Assembly: GCF_018599195.1 (NCBI RefSeq)
Contig: NZ_JAHFVK010000001.1
Location: 1-64,000, forward strand
DNA from: Croceibacterium selenioxidans
Lineage (GTDB): Bacteria; Pseudomonadota; Alphaproteobacteria; Sphingomonadales; Sphingomonadaceae
Direction: 5' to 3'
DNA length: 64,000 nucleotides
Part shown: positions 1 to 60,166 of the stretch, one piece after another
How the letters are laid out: each line of letters opens with the position of its first letter
Position numbering within the stretch: position 1 is the first letter of the stretch
The notes under the pieces: model-generated
What the model saw: only the letters and a program-made list of their open reading frames with translations
Database searches by the model: none
Told to the model about the DNA's origin: nothing
Program-made: the position numbers and the translations under genes

Positions 1-248
1 GGCAAAAGCAAAGCAATACGAAGCAGGCGCGATGGCATGCGCATGACGGTCATCCCCCTCAATCGGAACTGCGTGTCCCGTTCTTATTGGCTTGAGTTTC
101 TGCAACGGATCGCACGACTTGCCAAGCCGCGCGAATCGCAAGGTCTATGTTGACCAACCTGCCAAGGTCGTGGCAATCGGCGCCCGGATCGCTTGAGGTG
201 TAGGACGGACGGAGCCTCGGGATCGGTCTTGGCAGATTTTCGCCAATC
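1..248. other. Left chromosomal flank of the island, no confident gene
   Basis: This flank lies left of the tRNA-derived repeat. A short open frame at 2-46 on the plus strand ends in a stop and could be the last 14 codons of a gene that starts before the window. Another plus frame is open from base 1 to about 152. Neither has recognisable features. The region just upstream of 250 should contain the original promoter of the tRNA-Gly gene that was split by the integration. Confidence 0.4.
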
Positions 249-289
249 TGCGGGTGTAGCTCAATGGCAGAGCAGAAGCTTCCCAAGCT
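249..289 (+). repeat. attL: orphan 5' half of tRNA-Gly(CCC)
   Basis: These 41 bases are identical to 13283-13323. From 250 they read as a tRNA from the acceptor 5' strand through the D arm and the anticodon loop, ending in the 3' strand of the anticodon stem. After 289 the sequence diverges and no T arm or 3' acceptor strand follows, so this copy cannot fold as a tRNA. It is the left boundary of the integrated element. The strand shared with the real tRNA, plus the integrase beside the other copy, make an attachment-site reading secure. Confidence 0.9.
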
Positions 290-320
290 GGCCGATTTGG
301 CAGTTTTCTGCCACCTTCTT

Positions 321-384
321 TGTAAACCAGCCAGATTTTGTCCCTTTACCTATCAGACACTTGCGGGAGCAGTGTAAACTGCGT
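321..384 (+). repeat. Candidate integrase arm-type sites, left end
   Basis: TGTAAACCAGCC (321-332) and TGTAAACTGCGT (373-384) lie 32 and 84 bases inside the left attachment repeat. They resemble the tandem pair TGTAAACTGACC and TGTAAACTGGCC at the other end (13231-13254). Tyrosine integrases of this type bind short repeated arm sites on both sides of the core, so these are inferred arm sites. A small hairpin, GGCAG-TTTT-CTGCC, lies at 299-312 between core and arm sites. Confidence 0.45.
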
Positions 385-417
385 CGAACGACCCACAGTG
401 CAACGGGTTGCAACGGC

Positions 418-3400: not shown

Positions 3401-4818
3401 CCGCAAGCTTCGCCCCGAGCGAGCGCTCCTTTGCTGCCTGCCTCATATACGTCTGCGGGTCGCCAGAGGGTCTCGGTTTCGAGCATTTCCGAAGCGAGGC
3501 TTTGCATCAATTTCAAGACTGATCTGCGCGTGTCGTCGGGTCCGAGGTCAGCAGTCGCCAACCAACGGTCCAGCAAATCGCCCGCTTCAACCGAGGCAGG
3601 GTCAACGCCTCGCTGGACCAACTGGACGAATAGCTTGAGCGCAAAGGGTCGACGAAGGGTCTCTTTCAACTCGTCGGAAATGCCAGCGCACTCAACTTGC
3701 AACTCACTGAGCAGGGCAACGACATCGTCAATTGAAGGGAGGGCTAGGCTGAATTCCTCTGCCTTGAGTTGTTGGAACCGCGCATCGTGAGCCGCCTCAA
3801 ACGGCCGCGAAGAGACAACGACGTGAACTGGAAGTGCTTGATCCCGGATGTTCTTCACCATCCTAAGTAGCACCTTCATTCGATCCGAGGAGCGATCCAT
3901 GACGTCACTGACCGCATCCAACTGGTCGATAATAACCGTCACGGGTGCGGATCGTGCGACGACGGCGATCTCTGTCGCCAGAGGCCCTGCCATGCCTAGC
4001 GCGATCCCGACGTCCTCAATCGACTGAATGGTCGCGGGTAATGTGTCAGCCTTGATCCCAAATACGACGTGGCCGCAGCTTTCAAGTTCGTCAGTCAGCG
4101 TGCCCATCAAAGCGGATTTTCCGGACCCCGCCTCCCCAATTAAGATCGACGTTCCGTAGGGCGCCTCTTGAATATGCTTTTTGAGGCGCTCCAGTTCGGG
4201 TCTGAGGATTTCGCGGCCCGCAATGTCTCTGGGCCACTCTCGCAGTTCATCTGAACCCGCCTTCGCATCACGGATCGCGGCATTGAAATCGATTGCCGCT
4301 TCCTCCCCCTCACGTTGCTGACGCTCTAAGATGGCTCGGATTGCAGCCGTGTTGGCCAACGTCGTCTCTACCGCAATGAAGTGACCGACCTCGCGCCAGT
4401 ATTTTGATCTGTTGAACTGAGACCGGAGTTCGCGAATGATGATCTCAAACGCAGCCACTAGGTCTTTGGGGTCCGTCAAAAATATGCGACGTAAAACCTC
4501 GTCAGTTGTGTCGTCCTTAACGAAACGCTGCACAAACGTTTCCACAAACTGCTTCGCCAAACCGTTCGGATCGGGGAGGTCCGATGGATCACTGATGACG
4601 GTTTCAAGGACAGGGACGAACACCCCTTTAACGAAACTGATAGACCGTAGATCGGCTGCGAGTGAGGGAGCGGATTGTATGCCAGCTTCGATGGCAGCAC
4701 AGCCAATCTCGGCGACTTCCTTCTTCGCTTCCTTTGATTTGAATAGTTCAAACCCCTTATCTGAGGCATAAGCCAGTGCGGCCTCTCCGACTACACTGAG
4801 AATGATTTCCACCAGCAC
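418..4818 (-). CDS. Large STAND-type P-loop NTPase with helical-repeat C-terminus
   Basis: The product is about 1,466 residues. A helical N-terminal region of about 200 residues precedes a nucleotide-binding domain with Walker A GEAGSGKS (about 228-235) and Walker B VTVIIDQLDA (about 294-303), followed by VVVSSRP, a typical STAND/NACHT sensor strand. About 900 residues of repeated Leu/Ala-rich helices follow, resembling HEAT or TPR arrays. This layout (effector-like N-terminus, NTPase switch, repeat sensor) is typical of bacterial STAND proteins, many of which are antiphage sensors. I do not recognise the N-terminal domain. The start is uncertain: GTG at 4818 has GGAG ten bases upstream; an ATG at 4884 and a TTG at 4899 are also in frame. 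It is divergent from the RusA-like gene. Its antiphage role is inference. Confidence 0.75.
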   Translation of the reverse strand: MLVEIILSVVGEAALAYASDKGFELFKSKEAKKEVAEIGCAAIEAGIQSAPSLAADLRSISFVKGVFVPVLETVISDPSDLPDPNGLAKQFVETFVQRFVKDDTTDEVLRRIFLTDPKDLVAAFEIIIRELRSQFNRSKYWREVGHFIAVETTLANTAAIRAILERQQREGEEAAIDFNAAIRDAKAGSDELREWPRDIAGREILRPELERLKKHIQEAPYGTSILIGEAGSGKSALMGTLTDELESCGHVVFGIKADTLPATIQSIEDVGIALGMAGPLATEIAVVARSAPVTVIIDQLDAVSDVMDRSSDRMKVLLRMVKNIRDQALPVHVVVSSRPFEAAHDARFQQLKAEEFSLALPSIDDVVALLSELQVECAGISDELKETLRRPFALKLFVQLVQRGVDPASVEAGDLLDRWLATADLGPDDTRRSVLKLMQSLASEMLETETLWRPADVYEAGSKGALARGEACGLIVRSGQKIGFSHQSWLDDFQAKGFRTGKDLADYAWQNQDSLFVRATVLRSLQRLRTTDEGAYVRAVFALLSDGKTRRHLRHLVTDAISTVRSPTAQEAAWVDTLIRTDPILANRALGRVVQNWPNWRPFLSKCLPELMAKTQYHWPAVQALAEEAKIDPDGVVSLVRSHWSDPERDELVFRIVEQSGVITERVEELIGVLLRRTAIDPHSVSHLVTMLRTDGRFLEACRVVAIWVQTVDVGRDKNPQLYDVERLAEAAPLEFAETLMPWFLEQAAKDVEPNRDGIKRYSKSQSLPWDWDFERERGSIIEAFRDAMNAVAKADAASSTRLIGMMGSVEIDQVQEVIAQNYIAAGAALACHALRYVLADERRFYLGETHVMVEPGLSSIEAGLTSQELVEAIGAHLPTDRLADLRDAIETWSLYGAAYGTEDDAELKRMRLRWSDEHRMELLERLPPAILAPRRQRQIKEWRAAKGRPIPRKRGTTMATWVGSPMPASTMERAADHDIFGMLDAIHDTSPEYPRRRPISRNGGVSELSRAFGEFGKNNPERAVRVAQRFVAGKHENAAGYLMDELSKDGIYPPREVLRLIHEFSAKGFASRTWTTHAAWALSRLSGELKGLPTETLTMLESWLENDPETIADQVQKRLVSEAENERRNKKERAMPSPFLFRAYGGMRMVPQENYTLLAAIFHGLLGRDEPAYEAWLDVLERHASKPEDPHIWSFLLADKGKWLFWADRSRVQALLSKLSDLDFRIFMSIDLVGLLWSARAMFPDQLIVRVCEAWFASEDDEFRQAAAELAEAFAIVEPDSVTAKALAALVNDDVSPELTGRLFTAASAWGENERSLKAQAHAFLMEHVSRVGGDQAHAISAAVDQTDNLAPDDFTRELIVAVADNASVLAASLTGRFADGLQSLLLYPGFDEPVMYVTERIATLIVDQRGGMHRGFIDRDFVQVAIALQRNDAPLRARAMDVYEKLLDAGAYGAEEAAKAAMGR

Positions 4819-5189
4819 TCTGAACAAACTCCATGGCCTTTTATGGCTAAATGGCCACGGGGGGATGCCCAGGGCAAGAGACATGCGCCTTTGGTGCAAG
4901 TTGGTTCGGCATTACACGTCGAATACCTGTGGAATGTGCCTCGCTGTCGGGTTTTCGGCGGGTGTCGACCCGACGATAAGGTCCAAGCGTGAGTTCCAAC
5001 ATGGCGTGTTGGTGACGCTCGCCACGCTCATGAAGCGTCAAGAGACATCTCGACGTGATGCGAAGAGGCACTGCGCAGCCAACGTAGCGAATGGCGCGGC
5101 GCTAGTGGGTGTTTGAGGTTAGAGGTTTGGCCGGCGATGTCTGCAATGGACTAGGTCGGGGGCCATGTCAGGGTCAACGCAAGACGAGC
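4819..5189. promoter_or_regulatory. Divergent intergenic region, NTPase and RusA-like genes
   Basis: These 371 bases separate two divergently transcribed genes and must hold both promoters. No clean -35/-10 pair stands out. The 11-mer ATGTCTGCAAT at 5137-5147, followed by ACTA, recurs at 6542-6552 upstream of the second HEPN-like gene, at a similar distance from its start. If the NTPase begins at 4884 or 4899 the gap is shorter. Confidence 0.4.
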
Positions 5190-5621
5190 ATGTCGGATCA
5201 GGAGACGCTCTTTCCGTTTGAGGTTGTGCTAGAAGGCACGCCCATTGCGTTGCAATGCAAGACAAGCGCAACACGTGAGGCTTGGAAGAAGCGGGTTAAC
5301 GACGCGGCCAGCGAGCGACAACGCGCCACATATCAGTTGGGTTTTTTGGATGATCGAGCGCTCGCGGTCACAATCTACTACTTCCCAAGTGCGCCCATGG
5401 AAGGCGATGTGGACAATATCGCCAAACTGATACTGGATGGGATGATCAGCATCGCTTATCTCGATGATAAGGTCGTTGAACGAGTGACGGTTCAGAAATT
5501 TGAACCAGATGGTGGTTGGGAGTTCGTTGTGACAAGCGACATGTTGGCTCTCGCTTTGGATACGGAACCTCCGGTCGTCTATATTCGAGTTGATGACGAT
5601 CTAAGTTGGAGGACGGTGTGA
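5190..5621 (+). CDS. RusA-family Holliday junction resolvase-like endonuclease
   Basis: The product is 143 residues, close to the usual RusA length of about 120. The core block EGDVDNIAKLILDGM followed by YLDDKVVE matches the RusA signature. D73, D75 and D92/D93 correspond to the three metal-binding aspartates known in E. coli RusA. RusA proteins cut four-way DNA junctions as dimers and usually belong to phages or mobile elements. The ATG at 5190 gives a protein that begins directly before the beta-strand region; a longer frame upstream lacks support. The stop overlaps the next start as GTGA (5618-5621), so the two genes are translationally coupled. It may act on DNA with its partner nuclease, but that is inference. 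Confidence 0.78.
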   Translation: MSDQETLFPFEVVLEGTPIALQCKTSATREAWKKRVNDAASERQRATYQLGFLDDRALAVTIYYFPSAPMEGDVDNIAKLILDGMISIAYLDDKVVERVTVQKFEPDGGWEFVVTSDMLALALDTEPPVVYIRVDDDLSWRTV

Positions 5622-6298
5622 CAAGTTCGCCGCGCCAGACAGCGTACGCTGACGCAGAACGTGAAGTTCTTGAGCGTCTAAGGTCACGATATGAGCAGCA
5701 AGGGTCCACATTTGTGGTCGCGCCCGATGCTTCCTTGTTGCCGGAGTTTCTTGGTCCTTACATTCCGGATGCCATCGTGCAGACCGGCGACAAGACCATC
5801 GCCATTGAGGTGAAGCACGGGCAATCGCCGGTAACTCAGGCCAGGTTGCGCGACCTTCGGCGTATCTTTGACGGGCACCCCGATTGGCAACTTCTAGTGG
5901 TCTATGCGCCGTCTGGGCCGCTCCAGTCCCTGACAATTCCGTCCGCCACGCCGAGTGCTATTCGTATGCGACTGGACGACGTCCATCGTTTGAACAAAGC
6001 AGGCTTTGTGGATGCGGCTCTCGTGATGGGTTGGTCACTGTTGGAGGCTTGCCTCCAGCTAGTCGGCGAGACAGACAGCGCGAAGCCCCGAACACCCGGC
6101 ACGGTTGTGCAGACGCTCGCAGCAAACGGACACATCTCTCCCGGGGAAGAACAACAACTTCGGTCTTTGATCGAAGTCCGCAACCGCATTGTGCACGGCG
6201 ACGTAGCGGCGCAGTCAACCGGCTCCGATGTCGAACTCGTTCTCCGAACCGTCGAGAATATTATATCCGACATCGAAAGTGGTGACACCGCAAAGTGA
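5618..6298 (+). CDS. PD-(D/E)XK nuclease-like protein with C-terminal HEPN-like domain
   Basis: The product is 226 residues. The N-terminal half carries PDAIV (D51) and IAIEVK (E64, K66), the D-x(n)-ExK arrangement of the PD-(D/E)XK nuclease fold; it resembles the REase_AHJR-like group. The C-terminal half is helical and ends with VRNRIVHGD, giving R188-x4-H193, which fits the Rx4-6H active-site motif of HEPN ribonuclease domains. HEPN proteins are common in toxin and antiphage systems. GTG at 5618 is preferred because GGAGGA lies at 5608-5613 and the start overlaps the RusA-like stop; a TTG at 5606 is also in frame. The two-domain reading rests on motifs only. Confidence 0.62.
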   Translation: MTSSPRQTAYADAEREVLERLRSRYEQQGSTFVVAPDASLLPEFLGPYIPDAIVQTGDKTIAIEVKHGQSPVTQARLRDLRRIFDGHPDWQLLVVYAPSGPLQSLTIPSATPSAIRMRLDDVHRLNKAGFVDAALVMGWSLLEACLQLVGETDSAKPRTPGTVVQTLAANGHISPGEEQQLRSLIEVRNRIVHGDVAAQSTGSDVELVLRTVENIISDIESGDTAK

Positions 6299-6589
6299 GC
6301 CTTCGGGCGAAACGTCCAGGCCAGTGCTGCCTGCTCGGTCCGACGATACTATAAGGAGCGTAGAGCTAACTTAGCTGGGTGTCCTTTTTCTCGCATGACC
6401 TTCCTTCTGATAGATGAGACGGAACTGTGGAGACGGCCCCCAATAAGGTCGGATCGTGCTCTCGGAAGACAATCTCACTGATGCCTTAGAAGCTAGTTGA
6501 ATGAAAGCGGGCATGCCAATGTTGTGGAGGCGTGACGATCAATGTCTGCAATACTATGTGATGATATCAGCAAGTAGGAGGTAACGGAT

Positions 6590-7441
6590 TTGCAGCCGAT
6601 CCACGGATATTATCTGTATGAACTAGGGGCGCAGGTTCACCCTCTCACTCAGTTTAATTTTCAAGCCACTACATGGCAGGCGGCGCATCATCCTACTCTG
6701 GTGGCCCAAGGGGCACTTGGTGCGCTGCTGAACAATAGCGTCTATCAGCTTCGAACCAGCCGACAGGAGGGCCTCGAACTTCTAAACCTGCTCGGAAACT
6801 TCTTGTTCAACCTGCCAGACTTCAATTCACAGGGGCAGTTCGTTCCTGTCGCGACAATGTGGCCAGTCATCGACAAAGCTACGAAGTTTGAGACGGTTTT
6901 TAAAGCTGAGTTAGGTGTAACTCCAATGTTCTACGTTCCGCCACGGCACAACGTAGACATGACGGGGTATCTTCAACAGGGGCACCTCAGCTTCCCAGTT
7001 GATCTGGCGACGAAAGTTCCCGAAGCAATCCTCGATGCGCAGCAGGCGGCAAGGTGCATCGCATACGACCTTCCAACCGCGGCTGGGTTTCATCTGCATC
7101 GGGCGAACGAGAGCGTATTGCGCCGATATTTTGATCGGGTCGCAGGACCGGAGCACCGGCCTGACAGCCGAAATATGGGTGATTATATCAACAAGTTAAG
7201 TCAATTAGAGAAGGGTGATCAGAGGGTTCGAGCAGCACTCCGCGATTTGAAAGACTTGCATCGGAACCCGCTGATGCATCCGGAGGAGCATATCTCGACC
7301 ACTGACGATGCTATTAGCTTGATGGGGGGTGTAAGGGCGGCGATGTCATTAATGTTGAAAGAACTCCCTGAACCTTCACCTTTGACCGCCGATGGATATG
7401 CGGCACTCTTACAGTCCACCGGCACTGACGCGCATGGTTAA
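6590..7441 (+). CDS. Hypothetical protein with C-terminal HEPN-like motif
   Basis: The product is 283 residues with no recognised N-terminal family. Near the C-terminus the segment LKDLHRNPLMHPEEH contains R225-N226-P227-x2-H230, an Rx4H arrangement resembling the catalytic motif of HEPN domains. The surrounding sequence is predicted helical. The start codon is TTG at 6590, chosen because a near-perfect AGGAGGT lies at 6576-6582, seven bases upstream. The gene and its 291-bp upstream region are AT-richer than the chromosome. It follows the nuclease-HEPN gene in the same direction but has its own leader, which shares an 11-mer with the RusA-like leader. An RNase toxin role is only an inference. 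Confidence 0.5.
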   Translation: MQPIHGYYLYELGAQVHPLTQFNFQATTWQAAHHPTLVAQGALGALLNNSVYQLRTSRQEGLELLNLLGNFLFNLPDFNSQGQFVPVATMWPVIDKATKFETVFKAELGVTPMFYVPPRHNVDMTGYLQQGHLSFPVDLATKVPEAILDAQQAARCIAYDLPTAAGFHLHRANESVLRRYFDRVAGPEHRPDSRNMGDYINKLSQLEKGDQRVRAALRDLKDLHRNPLMHPEEHISTTDDAISLMGGVRAAMSLMLKELPEPSPLTADGYAALLQSTGTDAHG

Positions 7442-7572
7442 CTCGCGCCGAAGCGTCCGTCGGTGTTCTTTCGCGCCCAGATAGGGGGGCTTGCGGCGCG
7501 CGAAGCCAAGTGGAGATGAGTTGGGAGCGGTCCTTTGCTTCGCCGTCAACCATGAGCCGAAGTGTGATTGCG

Positions 7573-8280
7573 TTAGGCCGTCAGTCGCACCCTATGCCCG
7601 GACCACCTCTCGCAAAACTGCGCTGTGCGGTCCTTAACTGCTTCGGACGGATTGACGATAAAGAAGGTTCGACAGCTATACGCGTTAGCCCGGACAGCTA
7701 TCGTCCCATCGCCAAGCTGAGATCGCCACCACTCGACCTCCAAATCATGCCGTCCCGGATAGCGCGTGTTGTGGTGATAGATCACGGCCTGTCGCCCGTG
7801 CGCCAACGATAGCGCCTCCGAGATCGGCAGCTGCTTTCCGAACTTCCGATCCCGCCTACGACGCGGGTGATCATCAACCAACCCGTTGTCCGGGTCGGCA
7901 AACACCAAGTCGCAACCGCGTAGCTGGTCGGTAGTTCGGCCAAACCACTGGTGGCGAAAATCGCAACGCTCTCCGGCAGGGATGGCATCTGTGGTGATCG
8001 GTTCGCGGGAGTATAGTGCGCCGGGAAGTGCTCCCGAGGCTTCCAATGCGGCAACTGTCCGTTGCTCGCGCACCGTCGCTTTCAGCGTGTCGAACAGGTC
8101 CGGATCAAGGTGCCGCCACCTTTCGGGCTGGTCGAGATAGCTGACATGCCTTCCATCCGAATTGTGGTTTTCGTCCGGAAAGAGATACCACGCCACTCCG
8201 AGCGAGAGATCGGAAGCGATGGCTCTTATTAGCGCTAGCTTCACGTAATCGCCGATGTCACCGGCATATCGGTTTTGCAT
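7573..8280 (-). CDS. Conserved hypothetical protein with DPDNG motif
   Basis: The product is 235 residues and begins MQNRYAGDIGDYVKLALIRAI. It contains WYLFPDENHNSDGRH near residue 42 and CDLVFADPDNGL near the middle. I recall this layout from uncharacterised bacterial proteins, but I cannot assign a family. The ADPDNG segment superficially resembles the acidic loop after a beta-strand in Rossmann-type methyltransferases, and that resemblance is not enough to call one. ATG at 8280 is chosen over a longer frame to 8559 because AAGGGGGG lies just upstream and the QNRY start is clean. It is convergent with the preceding HEPN-like gene and divergent from the recombinase. Confidence 0.55.
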   Translation of the reverse strand: MQNRYAGDIGDYVKLALIRAIASDLSLGVAWYLFPDENHNSDGRHVSYLDQPERWRHLDPDLFDTLKATVREQRTVAALEASGALPGALYSREPITTDAIPAGERCDFRHQWFGRTTDQLRGCDLVFADPDNGLVDDHPRRRRDRKFGKQLPISEALSLAHGRQAVIYHHNTRYPGRHDLEVEWWRSQLGDGTIAVRANAYSCRTFFIVNPSEAVKDRTAQFCERWSGHRVRLTA

Positions 8281-8520
8281 TTGCCCCCCCTTTGCAAGAC
8301 CTTCGCAGAGAAGGGGCGAGTGATCCAGAGCAGTGAACGCAATAGGAATAAGAAGGCGTTTGAAGACGCGACGATTGATGGATCGACTGAAAATCATAGA
8401 ACTAACAGCGACAAAGAGATCGGGAGCCACATCATCCCAAGGAGCTTTGGTGCCCCAATTCGGACTTGCCTGCGATCCACACTCTCCTAGACTTAGCAAG
8501 TAAGTTGCTAGGATTATCAG

Positions 8521-9081
8521 ATGCTTGTCGGATACGCTCGCACCTCGACGTTCGATCAAATCGCCGGTCTAGAGGCGCAGATCGAGCACCTGGTTGCAAC
8601 GGGTTGCAAGGTCTTTGCCGAGCAGGTCTCATCGGTCGCTGAACGTCCTCAACTCGATGCTGCGCTGGACTTCGTGCGTGAGGGCGACACACTCGTCGTC
8701 ACGCGGCTCGACCGCCTCGCTCGTTCTACCGCCGACCTGTTGCGGATCGTAAGCGTTCTGGAGGCCAAAGGGGTGTCGCTCCGGGTGATCGACTTCGGTG
8801 GAAGCGAGATGGACACCCAATCGCCCGCAGGCCGCCTGACGCTCACGATGTTCGGAGCTTTGGCCCAATTTGAGCGGGAGTTGATGCTTGTTCGTCAGCG
8901 CGAAGGCATTGAGCGGGCCAAGCGCTTGGGGCGCTATCGAGGAAGGGCACCGACCGCACGCGCCAAACTGCTCGATATCAAGCGCCTCGCGGGAGAAGGA
9001 TTAAGAGCGCCTGATATTGCCAAAAAACTGGGCGTCTCCCGAGCCTCGGTCTACCGTCTGTTGGCTGAGGCCCGCCCATGA
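8521..9081 (+). CDS. Serine recombinase (resolvase/invertase family)
   Basis: The product is 186 residues, the standard length of small serine recombinases such as Hin, Gin and Tn3 resolvase. VGYARTSTFDQ carries the nucleophilic serine near residue 9, VTRLDRLARS the catalytic arginines, and the long dimerisation helix QFERELMLVRQREGIERAK follows. A C-terminal helix-turn-helix ends the protein (APDIAKKLGVSRASVYRLLAE). AGGA lies seven bases before the ATG. An inverted repeat TAGCAA-N5-TTGCTA at 8494-8510, immediately upstream, could be an operator or recombination half-site. The stop overlaps the next gene as ATGA, so this is a two-gene unit. No invertible segment is obvious nearby. Confidence 0.9.
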   Translation: MLVGYARTSTFDQIAGLEAQIEHLVATGCKVFAEQVSSVAERPQLDAALDFVREGDTLVVTRLDRLARSTADLLRIVSVLEAKGVSLRVIDFGGSEMDTQSPAGRLTLTMFGALAQFERELMLVRQREGIERAKRLGRYRGRAPTARAKLLDIKRLAGEGLRAPDIAKKLGVSRASVYRLLAEARP

Positions 9082-9593
9082 GCAAACTTTTTGCCCGGCT
9101 TACCGGCGAACTCGAAGACATTTGCAGGCCAGGCTTTGACGACGACTTTCCCGAGGATGTTCTTATCCAGATGCAGGTTGAGAAGGCTATCGCGGCAGGC
9201 CATCCCTTACCTCGCTGGGGTTGGGGCACTCCTCGACCCTATAACGGCAGCAGTGGGATCGAACGAATAATGGGGTGGCAGAAGTTGCGGATCGCAGAAC
9301 AACTGCGGCTGCTCATCCCCGCTAATTGCTGCTCAATCTGCCGTACATCGGGAGCGGAGCACAGACATGCTGAGTGCTATTTCCGGCCCTTGGCGATCAA
9401 GCAAGTCTGCCGCTCATGCCATTTTCGCGTTCATAGACGCTTTTTCGATCCGCCTCGTTGGCGTGCTTTCGTTGAAGAACATTCGAGACCCGGCGACTGG
9501 GCCATCTCATTGCGAACGATTGAGTTGAACCGGGACGAGGCAATTCAGATCGCTGCGGCTCCGGATATATTCGCTTCCCTTGCGATGCGATGA
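9078..9593 (+). CDS. Cys/His zinc-binding protein, HNH-nuclease-like
   Basis: The product is 171 residues. Its central segment reads CCSICRTSGAEHRHAECYF, then RPLAIKQVCRSCHFRVHRRF. The Cys-x2-Cys, His-x-His, Cys-x2-Cys-His and final Val-His spacing resembles the zinc-supported beta-beta-alpha core of HNH endonucleases, although a canonical HNH triad is not certain. It starts inside the stop of the serine recombinase (ATGA at 9078-9081), which indicates co-translation. It could assist recombination or be an independent nuclease. A simple structural zinc finger is the main alternative. Confidence 0.5.
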   Translation: MSKLFARLTGELEDICRPGFDDDFPEDVLIQMQVEKAIAAGHPLPRWGWGTPRPYNGSSGIERIMGWQKLRIAEQLRLLIPANCCSICRTSGAEHRHAECYFRPLAIKQVCRSCHFRVHRRFFDPPRWRAFVEEHSRPGDWAISLRTIELNRDEAIQIAAAPDIFASLAMR

Positions 9594-9616
9594 CGCTAAC
9601 TTTTTCGGGGGTTTAA

Positions 9617-10195
9617 ATGGGGGGTTCGATGAGGGTTTGGGAGAAAGCGTGCCCGCGATGCCGGGAAACGATAAAAAAGGCCGCCCATCTTTGTAAGCAT
9701 TGCGGCCATCGGTTTTCCGAGGCGGAGATCGCGGCCGGTTCCAATGGACAACAGAACAACACGATCAAGGGTCTGACCTACTTCGCGATAGTCGTGGGGC
9801 TCGTGTTGCTCGCTCGGTTCTGCGCGTCGGATAAGGACGGGTCGAAAGTTGGCAATGCCAGTTCGGATACCAAGGCAAGCGAAAACCCATACGCGGACGG
9901 CGGTAAGCAGGTCGCGTGGATTGAGGTGTCAAAGGATGCAATCCGAACGCGCTTGAGAGACCCGGACAGTGCGCAATTCCGAGAAGTTCACTTCTATTCG
10001 GGTGGCAAAGCACCCGTCGCTTGCGGCGAGGTCAATGCCAAGAATGGCTTCGGAGGATACACAGGCTACGAACGTTTTGTCGCTGCGGGCAACGTCGACG
10101 GCCTAGCGTTTCTTGCCTCCGATCTCACCTCATCGTCCGAAATGGACAAGGTCTGGGAAACGATGTGCGTCAAGGCTCCGACCGACAGCCAGTAG
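9617..10195 (+). CDS. Zinc-ribbon membrane-anchored protein of unknown function
   Basis: The product is 192 residues. The N-terminus has a zinc ribbon (CPRCRETIKKAAHLCKHCG), then one hydrophobic segment at about 52-68 (LTYFAIVVGLVLLARF). The C-terminal domain contains IRTRLRDPDSAQFREVHF and CGEVNAKNGFGGYTGYERF, a block seen in many short phage and plasmid proteins of unknown function. The start may be the ATG at 9617 or the in-frame ATG at 9629. The topology places the zinc ribbon in the cytoplasm and the second domain probably outside. No function is proposed. Confidence 0.6.
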   Translation: MGGSMRVWEKACPRCRETIKKAAHLCKHCGHRFSEAEIAAGSNGQQNNTIKGLTYFAIVVGLVLLARFCASDKDGSKVGNASSDTKASENPYADGGKQVAWIEVSKDAIRTRLRDPDSAQFREVHFYSGGKAPVACGEVNAKNGFGGYTGYERFVAAGNVDGLAFLASDLTSSSEMDKVWETMCVKAPTDSQ

Positions 10196-10530
10196 ACCTG
10201 CCCCCCCTTGAAGGCTCCCCCGTGGAGGCGTTGGGGTGTGGTGATCTCGGTTGCTGGGTTCCGTGCCTCGGAATTGTCTCACCCTTCTTGGATCGCTCCG
10301 AATGGTTTCATCGCTGGGTTGGTTTGATCATCAACGACGCATTCTGCATCTTCGCTCAAAATGTTGTGATCAGTTAAGATGGTCGAATTGAGTAACTTCA
10401 TGGCAAATTATGAAATGGTAATCTACACGAGTAGAATACATGAAGAGATGAAACAAAATTCTTAGCTAAAATTGTTGATACCATGCGAAAATATGAATAA
10501 CTCACCGCCTCAAACGAAAGGTTGGTGTGT
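10196..10530. other. AT-rich leader before the replication-like gene
   Basis: This 335-bp gap changes from GC-rich to strongly AT-rich at about 10370-10505. An inverted repeat TCTAC-ACGA-GTAGA lies at 10422-10435. Its position directly upstream of a replication-initiator-like gene would suit a promoter or an origin of replication, but I see no clear iteron array and the origin idea is inference. Confidence 0.35.
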
Positions 10531-11805
10531 ATGACAGTAGTTGAATTTGACGTCGCCAAGCCAGCGGTGGTGAAGAAGCCTCCCACCGCGCTCACCGCCA
10601 CTCAGACGATCATCCGCGAATGGATGCCGCACCTCTCCGCCAGCGAGTTCGTCGTGGTGATGGTGCTGCTGGATCGTACCCTCGGCTGGCAGAAGACCCG
10701 CGCCACGTTCAGCCTCGACCGAGTGCTCAACGGCGACAAGATATACAGCGGCATGAGCAACACGGTGTCGCGGCGTTCGCTTTTTCGCGCCCTCGCTAGG
10801 CTCGAACTCAAGGGTATGATTGCTCGCCATCATCATCCGGAGGGCAAGCAAATCAAGGTATCTTCCGTCAATCTCGGGTGGTCTTCCGCCATGCTTAACG
10901 TCCCGGAGCGCCTCAAAACCGGTGCCGCTGTGACACTTGACCAGTGTCAGGCTGGCACGGGGGCAGTGCCACAGTGGCACACGAGAGAAAGTAATCCGGG
11001 AGAAGGAAGTCTGGAGAACGAAAACTATGCTGAGCCTGCGTCTCAGCGCACCATTGATCCGAGCGAATTGATCCGGGAAGCAAGAGAAGAAGTTTCCGCC
11101 CGCCGCAAGCCTCGCCCGGCCGCCAAGATCATGAAACTGAAAGACCGGGTCGACGCCGCTCAGGCTCAGTGGCGGGCTGCCATCAGCGAGGTTCACCCGA
11201 CCGGCGCTGTCCTGACGTGGAACGTCCGCGAAGTTCACATGGTCAAGAACAAGGCCAAGGGCTGGCTCCACACCGACCGCATCACCTTCCCGGACTTCAT
11301 CGGATGGTGCGCCAGAAGCTGGGCCAGCGTATGCCGGACCCAGCTTTCGTGGATGACCAAATCTTCGCCACCGAAGACGCCGAACATCGGGTTCTTGGTC
11401 TCGTTCATCGACCACTTCGCTGACGCTTGGGCGGGCGGCGATCTGGACGCGTGGATGAACGAGGATCAGCGCACCGTGTACGACAAGCTAGTCGCCTCCG
11501 GCCACAGTCACGACGAGGCGCTGCACGAGATGTCGAAGCGCGAGGCCGTGTCGATCATGCGGGACGAGAACCGCAAGGTGACTACCGACGCCAACCAGAA
11601 GCTGCGTGAGGCCGACCTCAAGGTGAAGCGAGCCGAGCGGCTGGAGAACATGCCGATCCATCCCCGGTCCCCGCTGGCGCAGCGCATCCGCCAAGGCGAT
11701 GCCGTGAACCCACCGCCCCGGACCCGCATCCGCACCGAGGAAGACCTCAAGGCTATCGACTGGGGCAACATGCCGGTACTTGATCCGAACTGGGAGCCGC
11801 TGTGA
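10531..11805 (+). CDS. Winged-helix replication-initiator-like protein
   Basis: The product is about 424 residues. The first 110 residues look like a winged helix (LSASEFVVVMVLLDRTLGWQ, then SRRSLFRALARLELKGMIAR), the arrangement found in N-terminal domains of phage replication proteins and plasmid initiators. The middle is lysine/arginine-rich. The C-terminal part has a long charged helical stretch (about 320-385), consistent with oligomerisation or helicase-loader contact. The ATG at 10531 has GAAAGG nine bases upstream; in-frame GTG 10525 and TTG 10522 are alternatives. An AT-rich leader precedes it. Assignment as a replication protein rests on domain architecture and island context, not on a specific family hit. 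Confidence 0.5.
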   Translation: MTVVEFDVAKPAVVKKPPTALTATQTIIREWMPHLSASEFVVVMVLLDRTLGWQKTRATFSLDRVLNGDKIYSGMSNTVSRRSLFRALARLELKGMIARHHHPEGKQIKVSSVNLGWSSAMLNVPERLKTGAAVTLDQCQAGTGAVPQWHTRESNPGEGSLENENYAEPASQRTIDPSELIREAREEVSARRKPRPAAKIMKLKDRVDAAQAQWRAAISEVHPTGAVLTWNVREVHMVKNKAKGWLHTDRITFPDFIGWCARSWASVCRTQLSWMTKSSPPKTPNIGFLVSFIDHFADAWAGGDLDAWMNEDQRTVYDKLVASGHSHDEALHEMSKREAVSIMRDENRKVTTDANQKLREADLKVKRAERLENMPIHPRSPLAQRIRQGDAVNPPPRTRIRTEEDLKAIDWGNMPVLDPNWEPL

Positions 11806-11912
11806 TCGCAGCAAATACTATATACCGTAAGTCATATTCGATTTGGGATGTCATCCAACTTTTTATGTCAATCTTTTTTTCTTGAAGTTTTCGGTGGATT
11901 TTCTAGTTTTTC

Positions 11913-12176
11913 ATGGTGTCTTTTTTACTTGGAACGCCAATGATCCGCCGTATTGCTCAAGAGCCGCAACTTCCTAATCCGCCGAGAAGGCGTAAGTTGC
12001 AGGCAACTTTCAAGAAGGTCGATCTCAAGCGGGCTGTTGATGCCGCGCTAAGCGTAGGGCTGCATATTGGCAGCGTTGAGATACGGCCAGACGGCACAAT
12101 TAGCCTGACTACCCTAGAAGCTGCACGGGGACACAGGCCAAGTGACGCTTTTTCGGAGTGGGCTGACAAGCTTTGA
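11913..12176 (+). CDS. Small protein upstream of integrase, excisionase-like candidate
   Basis: The product is 87 residues, or 78 if it starts at the ATG at 11940. It is basic at the N-terminus (PPRRRKLQATFKKVDLKRAVDAA) and carries VEIRPDGTISL. Short proteins with this K/R-rich start and an IxPDGxI strand are often encoded directly upstream of tyrosine integrases in alphaproteobacterial islands. Its stop overlaps the integrase start as TTGA (12173-12176), so the two are co-translated. It may control direction of recombination, but no excisionase fold is proven. The 107-bp leader upstream is very AT-rich. Confidence 0.5.
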   Translation: MVSFLLGTPMIRRIAQEPQLPNPPRRRKLQATFKKVDLKRAVDAALSVGLHIGSVEIRPDGTISLTTLEAARGHRPSDAFSEWADKL

Positions 12177-13240
12177 AGCGCACGCCTCACCTTGTGCGCA
12201 AGAAGACACGAGTTGGCATCGTCTGGTATATCTACGCTTGGCGCGGTGGACCGCAGGTCTTTCGGTCAGAAGGTCCGAAGCGGCCCCGCCTCGATGCCGA
12301 TATTATGCGGCGTATCGTCGCGGCGGACGAGATGGATAACAGTCCCGATCCTTCCACCCTGCTGGCCCTCATCAGAGATTGGCGTCGCAGCCCGGAATGG
12401 AAACAACTGGCGGACAGCACGAAAAAGACATGGGGATCAGCCCTCGACATGATTGAGGAGAAATGGGGCCGCATTCCTTTGGGCGTGTTCAACGACCCCC
12501 GAATGAAGTCGAAGGTCTTCGACTGGAGGGATAGCCGCAAGGATACGCCAAGAGCAGCGGACATCGGTGTCACGGTCTTGCGTGCCTTACTCAAGTTTGG
12601 CGTGCAGAGGGGGCGTCTCTCCACTAATGTGGCAGCTGATATTTCGAGCCTCTACCGGAACGGTCAGCGAGCCGAGATAATTTGGCTCCCTGACGACCTA
12701 AGGCGCTTCGCCGAGGCTGCGAACCAAGCTGTCAACGATGCCGTCCGACTTGCTTGCCTCACTGGTTTGCGATGCGCCGACTTAGCCGATCTGCGATGGA
12801 GTGAGATTGGAGAGAAGGCGATCATCCGCGTTGCTAGCAAAGTCAGCAGAGGCAAGAGACGCAGGGCGACGGTGACTGTTACACCCCAACTTAGCGAACT
12901 TCTCACAGAGCTTCGATCCCGCAAACGGAAACCTGACGTCGACACAGTGCTTGTTACGTCAGACGGGAGGAGATGGTCGTCGGATGGTCTGGGTAAGCGG
13001 GTCGGCGAAGCCGCCACCAAGGCGGGCATCGTTCACACGGATGGCCGCAGGAAACACTTGCACGATTGCCGTGGTACTTGCGCGACCCAGCTTATGCTTG
13101 ATGGCGCGACCGATCAGGATATTGCTCGGGTATTGGCATGGTCGCCGGAAAGAGTGGCCTCCATTCGGATGGTCTATATTGACCAAGCGAGGACCGTTGT
13201 GGCACTTGCCGACCGCCTTGCCGCTAAGGCTGTAAACTGA
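12173..13240 (+). CDS. Tyrosine recombinase / island integrase
   Basis: The product is 355 residues. The catalytic set is visible: R200 in LTGLRCADLADLRW, a lysine in the 222-229 beta-hairpin, H297-x2-R300 in HLHDCRGTCATQL, W323 at the usual His/Trp position, and the nucleophile Y335 in MVYID. The N-terminal 170 residues fit an arm-binding and core-binding region (DSTKKTWGSALDMIEEKWG). The start is TTG at 12173, overlapping the upstream stop. The gene ends 43 bp from the intact tRNA-Gly and transcribes toward it. It should integrate and excise the island at the tRNA anticodon-stem region. Confidence 0.92.
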   Translation: MKRTPHLVRKKTRVGIVWYIYAWRGGPQVFRSEGPKRPRLDADIMRRIVAADEMDNSPDPSTLLALIRDWRRSPEWKQLADSTKKTWGSALDMIEEKWGRIPLGVFNDPRMKSKVFDWRDSRKDTPRAADIGVTVLRALLKFGVQRGRLSTNVAADISSLYRNGQRAEIIWLPDDLRRFAEAANQAVNDAVRLACLTGLRCADLADLRWSEIGEKAIIRVASKVSRGKRRRATVTVTPQLSELLTELRSRKRKPDVDTVLVTSDGRRWSSDGLGKRVGEAATKAGIVHTDGRRKHLHDCRGTCATQLMLDGATDQDIARVLAWSPERVASIRMVYIDQARTVVALADRLAAKAVN

Positions 13241-13254
13241 CCTGTAAACTGGCC
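13231..13254 (+). repeat. Candidate integrase arm-type sites, right end
   Basis: Two 12-bp units stand in direct tandem: TGTAAACTGACC (13231-13242) and TGTAAACTGGCC (13243-13254), with one difference. They overlap the integrase stop codon and lie about 30 bp from the attachment core. Related sites occur inside the left end at 321 and 373. Presence at both ends and nowhere conspicuous between fits arm-type integrase binding sites. Confidence 0.5.
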
Positions 13255-13282
13255 GGTCTCGACAGTCCAAAAATGGCGGAAA

Positions 13283-13323
13283 TGCGGGTGTAGCTCAATG
13301 GCAGAGCAGAAGCTTCCCAAGCT
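13283..13323 (+). repeat. attR: element-side copy of the 41-bp repeat
   Basis: This copy is identical to 249-289 and forms the 5' half of the functional tRNA-Gly(CCC). Because it lies on the element side of the junction, the island itself supplies the 5' half of the tRNA and whatever promoter now drives it. The identity ends at T13323, in the 3' strand of the anticodon stem, so strand exchange occurred at or before that point. Confidence 0.88.
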
Positions 13324-13357
13324 TACGACGAGGGTTCGATTCCCTTCACCCGCTCCA
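13284..13357 (+). tRNA. tRNA-Gly (anticodon CCC)
   Basis: The gene is 74 bases with the encoded CCA end. It has acceptor strands GCGGGTG and CACCCGC with discriminator T, D-arm GCTC/GAGC, an anticodon loop TTCCCAA with CCC at 13316-13318, and T-loop GGTTCGATTCC. It matches the known bacterial glyU-type tRNA pattern. It reads GGG codons. The 5' half comes from the integrated island (see attR), the 3' half from the chromosome. Confidence 0.95.
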
Positions 13358-56515: not shown

Positions 56516-57067
56516 CTAGGACACCGCGATCTCCCGCCACTGGCCCGGTGCCAGGCCCTCCACCGTCAAGTCGCCGATCGACCATCGAACCAGCCTGAGC
56601 GTCGGGTGGCCCACAGCGGCGGTCATCCTGCGGACCTGGCGGTTCCGACCTTCGCTGATCGTCAGCTTGAGCCAGCTGTCGGGGATGGTCTTGCGAACCC
56701 GTATCGGCGGATCGCGTGGCCACAGGTCCGGAGCCGGAATGCGGTCGGCCTTGGCGGGCCGGGTAGGACCATCCTTCAGCTGGACCCCCGCGCGCAACTG
56801 GTCGAGATTAGCGTCGCCCGGCTCCCCTTCGACTTGGACGAGGTAGGTCTTCGGCATCTTGAAGCGGGGATCAGCAATCCGCGCCTGCAGCCGCCCATCG
56901 TCGCACAGCAGCAGCAGGCCTTCGCTGTCGAGGTCGAGCCGTCCGGCGGGATAGACGCCGGGCAGGTCGATGAAGTCCGACAGCGTTCTGCGAGCCGCAT
57001 CGAGGCTGCGGTCGGTGAACTGCGACAGCACGCCATAGGGTTTGTTGAACAGAATCAGCCGGGCCAC
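56516..57067 (-). CDS. rluE: Pseudouridine synthase, RluE type
   Basis: The product is 183 residues. [35 protein letters not shown] (catalytic Asp in RLD) and [26 protein letters not shown] match RsuA-family pseudouridine synthases. No S4 domain is present, as in RluE, which modifies 23S rRNA. The start is GTG 57067. Confidence 0.88.
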
Positions 57068-57649
57068 GTGTCGAGGATCCTTGGTCTGCTATCCGCGAGT
57101 AAGTTGACGCTTTTGGGGTGACGGGGTGACACTGTCGTGCGCCATTTGCGCAAAAGTGTCACCTTGCCGATTTTCCGCAGAAAACCGCCAATATTTCCGC
57201 CAACTTGCATCGACGAGTGTAACCTTTGGGCCTCTTGCCATTGTCGCAAGCTGACAGTTTTTCGCGCTTGGGCGACAGTCCACGAAGAGTATCCAACATT
57301 GGGAAAGAGCCGGAATCACCCTGGACCAGGGGCGGGCCTGTAGGAAAGTGTTTTCCGCGACTTCCGGCCCGGAGCCCCCCTTGCGAGGGTGGATGATGCG
57401 CTGTCGATGCGTCCGGCAAACCAACCCGCTGCAGTGTCGTGACCTCAAGTGGTCATGCCTCTTTGGACAAAGCGGCCTGTCACGGCTTCCAAGGTGTCCG
57501 TTACGATCCTGCCCGGGATGAGCAAGGAAACGCAGTTCCTGGGACCTTTCGCACTGCCTGGGTGTGGAGCCTTAAACGGTAGGCGGTCAGTCCACCTCGC
57601 AGTTGGAATGCCAGGCTGGAGCCGGAGCGGTGAATGGCACCCCAAACCC
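57068..57649. other. 582-bp gap with GTGACA repeats; no gene supported
   Basis: The region lies upstream of the RluE-type gene and downstream of the gene at 57650. It contains GTGAC (57118), GGTGACACTGTC (57125-57136) and AAAAGTGTCAC (57152-57162), the exact inverse of GTGACACTTTT at 40400. Weaker variants follow: GAGTGTAACC (57215) and CTGACAGTTTTT (57251). Beyond about 57300 I see no coding pattern, only GC-rich potential hairpins such as TGACC-TCAAG-TGGTCA near 57440. A structured RNA or a decayed gene cannot be excluded. Confidence 0.5.
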
Positions 57650-58159
57650 TCAAGCCGAGTTCGCAGGCAAGGGTGAACCCGATCCGCTGCGGACGATCCA
57701 GTCGTCGATCTTGCGCGCGATCGGTTCGACAGGGGCCTTTCCCGATCCGCCGTTGGCGATGCTGACCGCAAGGTTTCCGCGCGCGAAGGTCAGCGCGACC
57801 GCCGCGGCATAGGAGAACGCCACGTCGCCGGGCGCGTCTTGCAGCTGATGCACTTCGGGGGCCTGCATGTTGCCGAGCAGTTCGAGCAGCACCTCGTGCG
57901 CCGCCTCGCGCGAAGGGCATTCGCGGATGTCGAGCAGCAGCAGTGCGTCGGGCTTGTCGGGCGGGGTCCACGAGGCTCGCAGCAGCCGGGTGCCGTCGCC
58001 CGGGTCGATCAGCCGCACCCGTCCCGCGTCGAGGCCGGGGATCAGGTCCCAGGGCAGCGCGACGTCGTGCAGCTCAAGATCCTGTTCCAGCCGGTTGGTG
58101 CCCTTCCAATCATCGAACCCGAACCGTTCGCGGAGAGCTTCATATTGCTGCGTGACCAT
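57650..58159 (-). CDS. Hypothetical partner of the transglutaminase-like protein
   Basis: The product is 169 residues. It contains LLRASWTPPDKPDALLLLDIRECPSREAAHEVLLELLGNMQ and VAFSYAAAVALTFARGNLAVSIAN, a mixed alpha/beta pattern without a known family. GGAGGAG precedes ATG 58159. It starts 17 bases after the transglutaminase-like gene and is almost certainly in the same operon. A role as a binding, immunity or regulatory partner is inference. Confidence 0.6.
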   Translation of the reverse strand: MVTQQYEALRERFGFDDWKGTNRLEQDLELHDVALPWDLIPGLDAGRVRLIDPGDGTRLLRASWTPPDKPDALLLLDIRECPSREAAHEVLLELLGNMQAPEVHQLQDAPGDVAFSYAAAVALTFARGNLAVSIANGGSGKAPVEPIARKIDDWIVRSGSGSPLPANSA

Positions 58160-58176
58160 TTGCGCTCCTCCGATAG

Positions 58177-59364
58177 TCAGAACACGCTGCGCCGGACACG
58201 CGTCGAGGGTTGCGGGTCGCAGTTGCCCGAGGGCGAGAGTTTGTCGCGATAGTCGCCGCTGCCCGGCGTCCCGAAGACCATGTTGGCCGGCAGAAGGGGC
58301 GTGTGCGGGGCGCTTGTGGGATCGGCGTCGCCATCGACCTGCAGGCAAGCGTCGTAGACGCGGTCCGCCGCTCCGCAGGCATCCTTCCACGGGATTTCGT
58401 GATAGCTGAAGCCGGACCAGCCGCAGGCCGTCTGCCAGGTCGAAGATCCGATCGCGAGCAGGGGATTGAGCTGGAAGCCCCAACCCATCCGCGATTGCCA
58501 GAGATCGCAACCAAGGGCGTTGGCGAAAGTGGAGACGAACGTCGCGCAGTCGGTGCAGTTGACGTACTGGCCGCGGCCGGGGCCTCCGGCGATCCGTTCG
58601 AGGAACGCCGTGCAGTCGAAGTCCGGATAGGCATAGCGCGTGCTGCCGCCGCCAGGGCAGTCATACTCTATGACCGAATGGCCGAGATCGTAGACCATCT
58701 GGGTGATCTGGCCGGCGGCGGTGTCCCGGTCGACCGCGCCGAACGCCCAGCCGCAGGCCTTGTCGAGCACTTCGGTCCAGGGAAGCTGGGTGTTGGAAGA
58801 GGCATAGGGAGCCTGCTGCCAGGGTGCCGTCGGAGTTTCGAGCAGCACGTAGATCCGGTGGTTGGAGGTATCGAAATCCTTCCAGGGCCCGCGCTTGCGC
58901 CGGTACTGCCAGCGCCACGAGGTGATGCGAATGCCCACGCCGACCTTGTGCAGTCTCGTCTTGCGCAGTTCGAACGTCTCCCAGCTGCTCAGGCCTGGAC
59001 CGTTGAAGTCGACATGCCGCGCCTTGACCTCTCCCAACACGTTGCCGAACAGCGCCCGGAACAAGCGGAGCAGCCAACCCAGACAGCCTGAAGGTCCATG
59101 ACCTCGGATCGTCGCGTCGATCGCTCGAATTCGCACGCGGGCAGGCTTGGAGGTCCAGCGAAAGCGCGCCTGGATCGTCAGCGTGTGGCCGGCGGTTTCT
59201 TTCTTGACGTAGGCCGCGGGCGAGTCTTCTGCATTGACGCTGACACCGGCCCGCCATTCGGGGACCGTGACGAAAGTCGTGCCGTTTCGCCGGATATTAA
59301 TGGCGTTGTTATGAACGGTGTTAGGATCGTGGTTGAACTTGATCGCATCGAGCCTCAGGGGCAT
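58177..59364 (-). CDS. Transglutaminase-like cysteine protease-fold protein
   Basis: The product is 395 residues, without a signal peptide. The C-terminal half has YVNCTDCATFVSTFANALG, with a likely catalytic Cys, then FSYHEIPWKDACGAADRVYDACLQVDGD, where a His and Asp follow at distances typical of transglutaminase/papain-like domains. The N-terminal half is beta-rich (WRAGVSVNAEDSPAAYVKKETAGHTLTIQARFRW). GGGGAG precedes ATG 59364. Substrate and location are unknown. Confidence 0.55.
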   Translation of the reverse strand: MPLRLDAIKFNHDPNTVHNNAINIRRNGTTFVTVPEWRAGVSVNAEDSPAAYVKKETAGHTLTIQARFRWTSKPARVRIRAIDATIRGHGPSGCLGWLLRLFRALFGNVLGEVKARHVDFNGPGLSSWETFELRKTRLHKVGVGIRITSWRWQYRRKRGPWKDFDTSNHRIYVLLETPTAPWQQAPYASSNTQLPWTEVLDKACGWAFGAVDRDTAAGQITQMVYDLGHSVIEYDCPGGGSTRYAYPDFDCTAFLERIAGGPGRGQYVNCTDCATFVSTFANALGCDLWQSRMGWGFQLNPLLAIGSSTWQTACGWSGFSYHEIPWKDACGAADRVYDACLQVDGDADPTSAPHTPLLPANMVFGTPGSGDYRDKLSPSGNCDPQPSTRVRRSVF

Positions 59365-59608
59365 TTTGCATCTCCCCGATCGCAGCGTTCTATTCAGGTT
59401 ATATTGCCATAAACTTGCTATTTTAACAACGAGTGCCGGGCCGGTATTTGAAACAACTCGTCCCGTATGAAGCATTTGGAGTACTGGTGCGAAGCGGGGC
59501 CTAGGCTCGCCCGGGCAAGTCGCTCGCTGAATACGTGATTTTACCTATATCATTGAGAAGGTGACGCTTACCATAATCGCCTACGCGGGTGATGGGAGGT
59601 CGTTAGAC

Positions 59609-60166
59609 GTGGACGCACAACGAGATGGGAAGCGCGCTCATTCGCGAACCAGTATGTTCGTGCTCGCCACCATGGCCACTACTTCGGCCTCTGGACCCAT
59701 CAAGATCAGGAACATGTCGGCCGGCGGGGCCCTCATCGAAGGTGAGTCGCTTCCCAATATCGGGGAACACTTGAAGCTGGTGCGCTCTGGTCTGAGCGTC
59801 TCCGGCAAAGTCGTCTGGCGCCAGCCCCGGAAGGCCGGCATGTGCTTCGATCGCGAAGTCCAGGTCTCCGATTGGCTCCCCGCTGGAAGCGGCACAACGC
59901 AGCAGGATGTGGACCGGATAGTTCACGAAGTGAAGGAGGGCAGGGTCGACACCAAGCCTGAGCCGCGGACGGATCTCGAACCGACGCCGATCACGGGTAC
60001 GGACTTGATGAACGTCGCCGTCGCGATCGAGGCGCTGGCCGATGCGTTGGCCGAAGACGGCTCTGTCGTGGCCAAGTATGCCACCCAGCTACAGATTCTG
60101 GATATTGCTTCGCAGGTCATGCGCAAGATGGCCGAACCTCGGCCGGCCGCTGCTGCGGGCGCCTAG
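59609..60166 (+). CDS. PilZ-domain protein
   Basis: The product is 185 residues. RAHSR matches the RxxxR c-di-GMP motif, and RNMSAGGALIEG the D/NxSxxG motif of PilZ domains, with the usual spacing. It therefore may bind cyclic di-GMP. The C-terminal helical part (about 125-185) is family-unspecific. GTG 59609 is preferred (GGGAGG nine bases upstream); GTG 59561 is in frame. Confidence 0.75.
   Translation: MDAQRDGKRAHSRTSMFVLATMATTSASGPIKIRNMSAGGALIEGESLPNIGEHLKLVRSGLSVSGKVVWRQPRKAGMCFDREVQVSDWLPAGSGTTQQDVDRIVHEVKEGRVDTKPEPRTDLEPTPITGTDLMNVAVAIEALADALAEDGSVVAKYATQLQILDIASQVMRKMAEPRPAAAAGA

What the first reader, a model, noticed from the sequence alone, without database searches (positions are those of the whole stretch)
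58177..59364. Cysteine-protease-fold protein with no signal peptide and a beta-rich N-terminus
The NCTDC segment and later His and Asp look like a transglutaminase/papain-type active site fused to an unknown beta domain, followed directly by an unknown 169-residue protein. The architecture could be an effector-immunity or enzyme-regulator pair.
Basis: inference. Interest (0 to 1): 0.55.

Follow-up and report, generated by a model that had tools for sequence, protein, structure and literature searches.

The report
Rare thiol-enzyme-like protein with partner
A bacterial gene for an uncharacterised protein that looks like a transglutaminase-type cysteine enzyme sits next to, and in one distant relative is joined to, the gene of a small partner protein, so the two probably work as one unit whose job is still unknown.

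Summary
Window 58177-59364 (minus strand) encodes a 395-aa protein with the NCTDC segment and later His and Asp. A 169-aa protein starts 17 bases downstream (57650-58159). Neither matches Pfam, NCBIfam, PADLOC or PDB sequences; PHROGs gave one weak hit for the enzyme only (E 0.52). I found the pair at six distinct loci in four lineages: three genomes of the window's genus (one is Porphyrobacter sp. BIN49), two Pyrinomonadales, and one other Pseudomonadota. Partner sequence lies beside the enzyme in 6 of 6. In one Pyrinomonadaceae MAG both are one continuous 581-aa reading frame. In the other Pseudomonadota genome the enzyme gene is a broken remnant and the partner is open. C270, H322 and D338 are invariant in 5 of 5 full-length enzymes, with transglutaminase-like spacing. 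The fold is not proven: AlphaFold models were poor (pLDDT 37 and 36.5) and profile comparison was weak. Both genes are under strong purifying selection in the genus. Best reading: a cytosolic transglutaminase-like thiol enzyme with a dedicated partner that recognises substrate or controls activity. The fusion and the lack of delivery features argue against secreted effector-immunity; intracellular toxin-antitoxin is not excluded.

The parts
58177..59364 (-). Enzyme-like gene, 395 aa: beta-rich N-terminal part (about residues 1-180) and alpha/beta C-terminal part with candidate triad C270/H322/D338
   Evidence: Translation; homologues; alignment A7; models; no family match (PHROGs one weak hit, E 0.52)
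57650..58159 (-). Partner gene, 169 aa, 17 bases downstream of the enzyme; homologous to the C-terminal part of the 581-aa fusion in L004
   Evidence: Translation; BLASTP to L004 C-terminus E 3e-13, to the G1017 partner 2e-22, to the G549 partner 4e-8; alignment A8
58555..58557 (-). Codon of C270, candidate nucleophile, at the start of a predicted helix
   Evidence: Invariant in 5 of 5 full-length enzymes; helix 270-283 and, in L004 numbering, 270-284
58399..58401 (-). Codon of H322, candidate catalytic His
   Evidence: Invariant in 5 of 5; also present in the G549 remnant
58351..58353 (-). Codon of D338, candidate catalytic Asp, 16 residues after H322
   Evidence: Invariant in 5 of 5; the same +16 offset in the 11 of 29 Transglut_core segments in which both search patterns were found
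59372..59377 (-). Shine-Dalgarno-like GGGGAG before the enzyme ATG
   Evidence: Read directly from sequence
58165..58171 (-). Shine-Dalgarno-like GGAGGAG before the partner ATG
   Evidence: Read directly from sequence

Best explanation
The two genes encode a two-part intracellular module: a transglutaminase-like (papain-superfamily) thiol enzyme, and a dedicated small partner that binds it and either presents the substrate or holds it in check until needed. SHOWN: a conserved, tightly linked and once fused gene pair; invariant Cys, His and Asp with transglutaminase-like spacing; long-term purifying selection in one genus. INFERRED: the fold, that C270-H322-D338 form a catalytic triad, that the two proteins touch, that they stay in the cytosol, and that the reaction is amide-bond hydrolysis or acyl transfer. 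The substrate is unknown.
For: Pairing: partner sequence lies beside the enzyme at 6 of 6 distinct loci (window; L002; L003, the same locus as L005 by eye; L004; L068; L008/L009). In L004 both are one 581-aa frame, and its C-terminal part is homologous to the window partner (E 3e-13). Active site: C270, D272, A274, G285, H322 and D338 are invariant in 5 of 5. The spacing pattern C.D.A(10)G(25-75)H(15)D is met by 5 of 5 family members, 3 of 29 Transglut_core segments, 0 of 27 NLPC_P60 segments and 8 of 20,000 shuffles of the window protein. A helix starts at C270 in both models. A profile comparison places C270 on the Transglut_core nucleophile; 3 of 300 column shuffles score as high. Selection: dN/dS 0.04-0.08 for the enzyme and 0.10-0.13 for the partner. 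The enzyme's GC (0.642) and GC3 (0.803) are like those of its neighbours, so it is not a recent foreign gene.
Against: No Pfam, NCBIfam or PDB-sequence match above a cut-off (weak hits that I reject as chance). Both AlphaFold models are poor over the catalytic part, and the Foldseek search of the second gave nothing at E <= 0.001. The profile match covers only 19 columns and is nearly as good for NLPC_P60 (5 of 300 shuffles). HMMER scores of the window protein against locally built Transglut_core and NLPC_P60 models were not above shuffles. The motif was chosen after seeing the sequence. The fusion rests on one MAG contig. No interaction was predicted or shown.
Confidence: 0.45

Rival explanations
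1. Intracellular toxin-antitoxin or defence-type module: the thiol enzyme damages the cell's own proteins when released, and the partner is its antidote.
For: Two-gene cassette, rare and patchy (3 of 6 genus genomes; 2 of 119 in Pyrinomonadales). In G549 the enzyme gene is a broken remnant while the partner frame is open, as expected if the antidote outlives its toxin. Fused toxin-antitoxin proteins exist (recalled, no call).
Against: No PADLOC match. Enzyme gene comes first, while classic antitoxins come first more often (recalled). No match on plasmids or phages. Very low dN/dS. The G549 case is a single one.
Confidence: 0.2
2. Secreted antibacterial effector and its immunity protein.
For: Order enzyme then partner; papain-like toxins are common in polymorphic toxin systems (passages of PMC3482391), and a transglutaminase-like contractile-injection effector is reported (passages of PMC11297309).
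Against: Partner fused to the enzyme in L004. No delivery domain found and no secretion gene among the neighbours examined. No sign of toxin-domain swapping: the five full-length enzymes align over nearly their whole length.
Confidence: 0.12
3. Peptide-maturation enzyme: a transglutaminase-like leader peptidase with a separate recognition protein, working like lasso-peptide B2 plus B1, which occur split or joined.
For: Same split/joined pattern and same enzyme class (abstract and passages of PMC10368454).
Against: Partner has no Pfam match to any recognition element. No precursor peptide or asparagine-synthetase-like cyclase was identified among the neighbours examined in the window, L004 or L069; small precursor genes were not searched for systematically.
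Confidence: 0.12
4. Non-catalytic binding protein: a beta-sandwich adhesion or scaffold protein whose conserved Cys, His and Asp serve structure or metal binding.
For: Four invariant cysteines (C204, C251, C270, C286) and an acidic D-x-D-x-D stretch (D344, D346, D348). The N-terminal beta-sandwich is of a common kind (Z at most 6.8).
Against: The transglutaminase-like spacing of Cys, His and Asp is kept down to 40% identity.
Confidence: 0.11

Closest known systems
Transglutaminase-like superfamily, Pfam Transglut_core PF01841
   Same: C-x-D-x-A motif, G at +15, His and Asp 16 apart with an aromatic or hydrophobic residue before the Asp; a beta-sandwich before the catalytic core, as in animal transglutaminases (recalled; weak factor XIII rows)
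   Different: No PF01841 match even at E 1; longer Cys-His gap than in the relatives' segments read; extra invariant cysteines; separate partner protein
Lasso-peptide leader peptidase B2 with recognition protein B1 (McjB type)
   Same: Transglutaminase-like cysteine peptidase with a small partner, split or joined (abstract and passages of PMC10368454)
   Different: Partner is not a recognised RRE; no cyclase or precursor gene identified nearby; enzyme has a beta-rich N-terminal part
BTLCP / LapG-type bacterial transglutaminase-like cysteine proteinases
   Same: Bacterial transglutaminase-like thiol peptidase with a dedicated regulator (BTLCP seen only as a reference in PMC10318531; regulator recalled)
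   Different: No Pfam match; no signal-peptide-like start; partner unrelated by any search
NlpC/P60 peptidases (PF00877)
   Same: Cys at a helix start, His and acidic residue (recalled); a 17-column profile match
   Different: That match would make C273 the nucleophile, and C273 is Phe in L004; strict motif in 0 of 27 NLPC_P60 segments

Membership tests
Transglut_core PF01841 | Match to the curated profile | tested here: not met
   0 Pfam families at E <= 1 for the window enzyme, the L004 enzyme and the G1017 enzyme
Transglut_core PF01841 | Cys-His-Asp triad with transglutaminase-like spacing | tested here: met
   5 of 5 enzymes; 8 of 20,000 shuffles; pattern set after seeing the protein
Transglut_core PF01841 | Papain-like alpha/beta core with Cys at a helix start | tested here: inconclusive
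   Helix begins at C270 in both models, but pLDDT is under 50 there; hhalign 3 of 300 shuffles
NlpC/P60 PF00877 | Match to the curated profile | tested here: not met
   No Pfam match; HMMER with a model of 27 relatives' segments not above shuffles for the window protein
Effector-immunity pair | Delivery domain or secretion genes nearby | tested here: not met
   None by Pfam in the genes examined; whole genomes were not searched for secretion systems
Effector-immunity or toxin-antitoxin pair | Enzyme toxic, partner neutralises it | not testable with these tools
   Needs expression tests
Lasso-peptide B1/B2 | RRE domain (PqqD-like, PF05402; accession recalled) in the partner | tested here: not met
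   0 Pfam families for the partners
Lasso-peptide B1/B2 | Precursor peptide and cyclase genes adjacent | tested here: inconclusive
   Not seen among the neighbours examined; short ORFs not screened
BTLCP / LapG (PF06035; accession recalled) | Match to the curated profile | tested here: not met
   0 Pfam families at E <= 1 for the enzymes

The most novel reading that the evidence does not exclude
A previously undescribed intracellular protein-modifying or protein-cutting module: a divergent transglutaminase-like thiol enzyme whose activity is gated by an obligate partner found both as a separate protein and as a fused domain, possibly a conflict or cell-suicide device.
Probability: 0.2. Interest if true: 0.6.

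Novelty: new variant of a known kind. Interest (0 to 1): 0.38.

Why it matters
If right, it is an uncharacterised thiol-enzyme family that curated profiles miss, with a partner whose fusion in one lineage points to a direct working relationship. That makes the regulation question testable with two proteins and one point mutant. Its rarity, and the broken copy in one genome, would also help to separate a housekeeping role from a conflict role.

Tried and rejected
Relatives in phages, plasmids and viral contigs: no confirmed relative of the enzyme and none of the partner on plasmids or phages (phages with the G549 partner only, and with the L004 fusion). The viral-contig calls are pattern scans; stretches matched a pattern but none was confirmed.

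G308 (E 4.6e-4) was dropped as spurious: 54 residues with three stops inside, and no homologous ORF at the place.

Structure: two AlphaFold jobs, mean pLDDT 37.1 (window enzyme, 3 sequences) and 36.5 (L004 fusion, 6 sequences). Foldseek of the second model gave no match at E <= 0.001. VIA-align rows, Z at most 6.8, lie almost wholly in residues 1-180 and show only a common beta-sandwich arrangement. No fold claim is made for the catalytic part or the partner.

Direct profile proof of transglutaminase membership failed: HMMER with --max scored the window enzyme no better than shuffles. The hhalign run used some loci in the wrong orientation and is void; it was redone, where L029 was dropped for a stop, leaving 29 of 30 Transglut_core segments and 27 of 27 NLPC_P60.

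The NCBIfam hit of the G549 partner to Csx31 (18.3 bits against a cut-off of 150, 32 residues), the NCBIfam hit of the L004 fusion to FeaR (12.9 bits against 199), the PDB hits of the partner profile (E 0.34 and above) and the PHROGs hit of the enzyme (E 0.52) were rejected as chance.

Neighbourhood clues: a PilZ gene is divergent in the window, but neighbours differ in L004 and G1017, so no functional inference was drawn. A promoter/terminator scan of 57000-60000 gave nothing above shuffles.

Full report
WHAT IS THERE. The reading frame at 58177-59364 (minus strand) encodes 395 aa, and a second gene at 57650-58159 encodes 169 aa, 17 bases downstream. Both have Shine-Dalgarno-like sequences (read). 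Neither has a signal-peptide-like start by eye; no program was run. Neither matches Pfam, NCBIfam or PADLOC at E <= 1, or PDB sequences at E <= 10. PHROGs gave one weak chance-level hit for the enzyme (E 0.52). The window's genome has no second copy.

DISTRIBUTION. With the window protein as query, 2 of 149 genomes sampled from the family match, own genome included, and 3 of 6 in the genus. A pattern scan of the named genome collection gave 2 loci: L003 (Porphyrobacter sp. BIN49 MAG, 93%) and L004 (Pyrinomonadaceae MAG, 44%). With alignments of the enzyme: 2 of 396 in the phylum sample of L004's genome, one of them spurious; 2 of 398 in the window's phylum sample (own and G549); 2 of 119 in L004's order (G152, which holds L004, and G1017); 2 of 162 in its class, the same two. 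With the partner alignment: 1 of 4 in the family and 1 of 48 in the class of G549, both G549. L003 and L005 (G150) read the same by eye, so I count six distinct loci. The collections are samples and the first scan used exact peptide patterns, so the family may be more widespread than these counts show.

THE PAIR HOLDS TOGETHER. At all six loci partner sequence lies directly beside the enzyme: separate genes in the window, L002, L003 and G1017; one continuous 581-aa frame in L004, whose C-terminal part matches the window partner at E 3e-13; and in G549 a 163-aa partner frame (E 4e-8) after a frameshifted remnant that keeps only the C-terminal region with the His and Asp. The G1017 partner is longer, 258 aa, with a C-terminal extension (E 2e-22). 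The neighbouring genes differ between the window, L004 and G1017, so the pair itself is the conserved unit. The fusion is seen in one MAG contig only.

ACTIVE SITE. In five full-length enzymes (the four others are 40-96% identical to the window protein), C270, D272, A274, G285, H322 and D338 are invariant. Four cysteines are invariant in all (C204, C251, C270, C286), and an acidic stretch D344/D346/D348 follows. C273, the second Cys of NCTDC, is Phe in L004, so C270 is the better nucleophile. The spacing C-x-D-x-A with G at +15, then H with D at +16, follows the transglutaminase pattern: the H-D offset is 16 in the 11 of 29 Transglut_core segments in which both of my search patterns were found. 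The full strict pattern occurs in 5 of 5 family members, 3 of 29 Transglut_core segments, 0 of 27 NLPC_P60 segments, 3 of 715 background ORFs and 8 of 20,000 shuffles. The background includes the Transglut_core loci; at the looser pattern 20 of 715 match, 13 of them evident transglutaminases by eye, and 532 of 20,000 shuffles. The pattern was set after seeing the protein, so this is support and not proof.

FOLD. AlphaFold models had mean pLDDT 37.1 and 36.5. Only N-terminal strands are fairly confident. Foldseek and VIA-align matched that part to generic beta-sandwiches (Z at most 6.8, a level the tool calls common). A helix starts at C270 in both models but with low confidence. Profile comparison with Transglut_core aligned 19 columns at the nucleophile (3 of 300 column shuffles as good), and with NLPC_P60 17 columns (5 of 300). 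HMMER against the same alignments did not rise above shuffles for the window protein. The superfamily assignment is therefore likely but unproven.

SELECTION AND HISTORY. Among three genus members dN/dS is 0.039-0.084 for the enzyme and 0.101-0.134 for the partner, with dS 0.49-0.80. GC and GC3 of the genes resemble their neighbours. The pair is therefore a long-standing, functional resident of those genus members that carry it. Sequence similarity to L002 and L003 ends just after the partner stop (57645-57649).

HOW IT PROBABLY WORKS. The best reading is an intracellular transglutaminase-like thiol enzyme whose partner recognises substrate or controls activity; the steps of catalysis, binding and location are inferred. 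The closest functional analogy is the lasso-peptide leader peptidase, whose recognition part occurs joined (B) or split (B1 and B2) (abstract and passages of PMC10368454); no precursor or cyclase gene was identified here. Toxin-antitoxin is the main rival; the open partner beside the broken enzyme in G549 fits it. Secreted effector-immunity is less likely, because an immunity protein fused to its effector would travel with it and no delivery feature was found.

LITERATURE. Four searches listed no paper that I recognised as being on this family. Only listings, abstracts or passages were read: PMC11297309 (passages), PMC10318531 (passages), PMC3482391 (passages) and PMC10368454 (abstract and passages). 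The library holds open-licence papers only, so this is not proof that nothing is in print.

Noticed in passing
window 1-13357: Low-GC stretch (0.55-0.57) that ends at a phage-type integrase gene (12167-13240) next to tRNA-Gly(ccc) at 13284-13357. It also holds a resolvase (8512-9081), a 1497-aa NACHT-like ORF (418-4911, minus) and a REase_AHJR plus HepT-like fusion (5597-6298). It looks like a mobile island with possible defence genes.
   Followed up: partly
window 57068-57649: About 580 bases of lower-GC DNA (0.584) between the partner stop and the pseudouridine synthase gene. Similarity to two congeners ends exactly at its edge, which suggests a rearrangement site.
   Followed up: no
L009 5600-6250: In G549 the enzyme gene is a frameshifted remnant with no recognisable N-terminal part, while the partner frame behind it is open.
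   Followed up: partly
L068 2734-3510: The G1017 partner has a C-terminal extension of about 85 residues; the whole protein has no Pfam match.
   Followed up: partly
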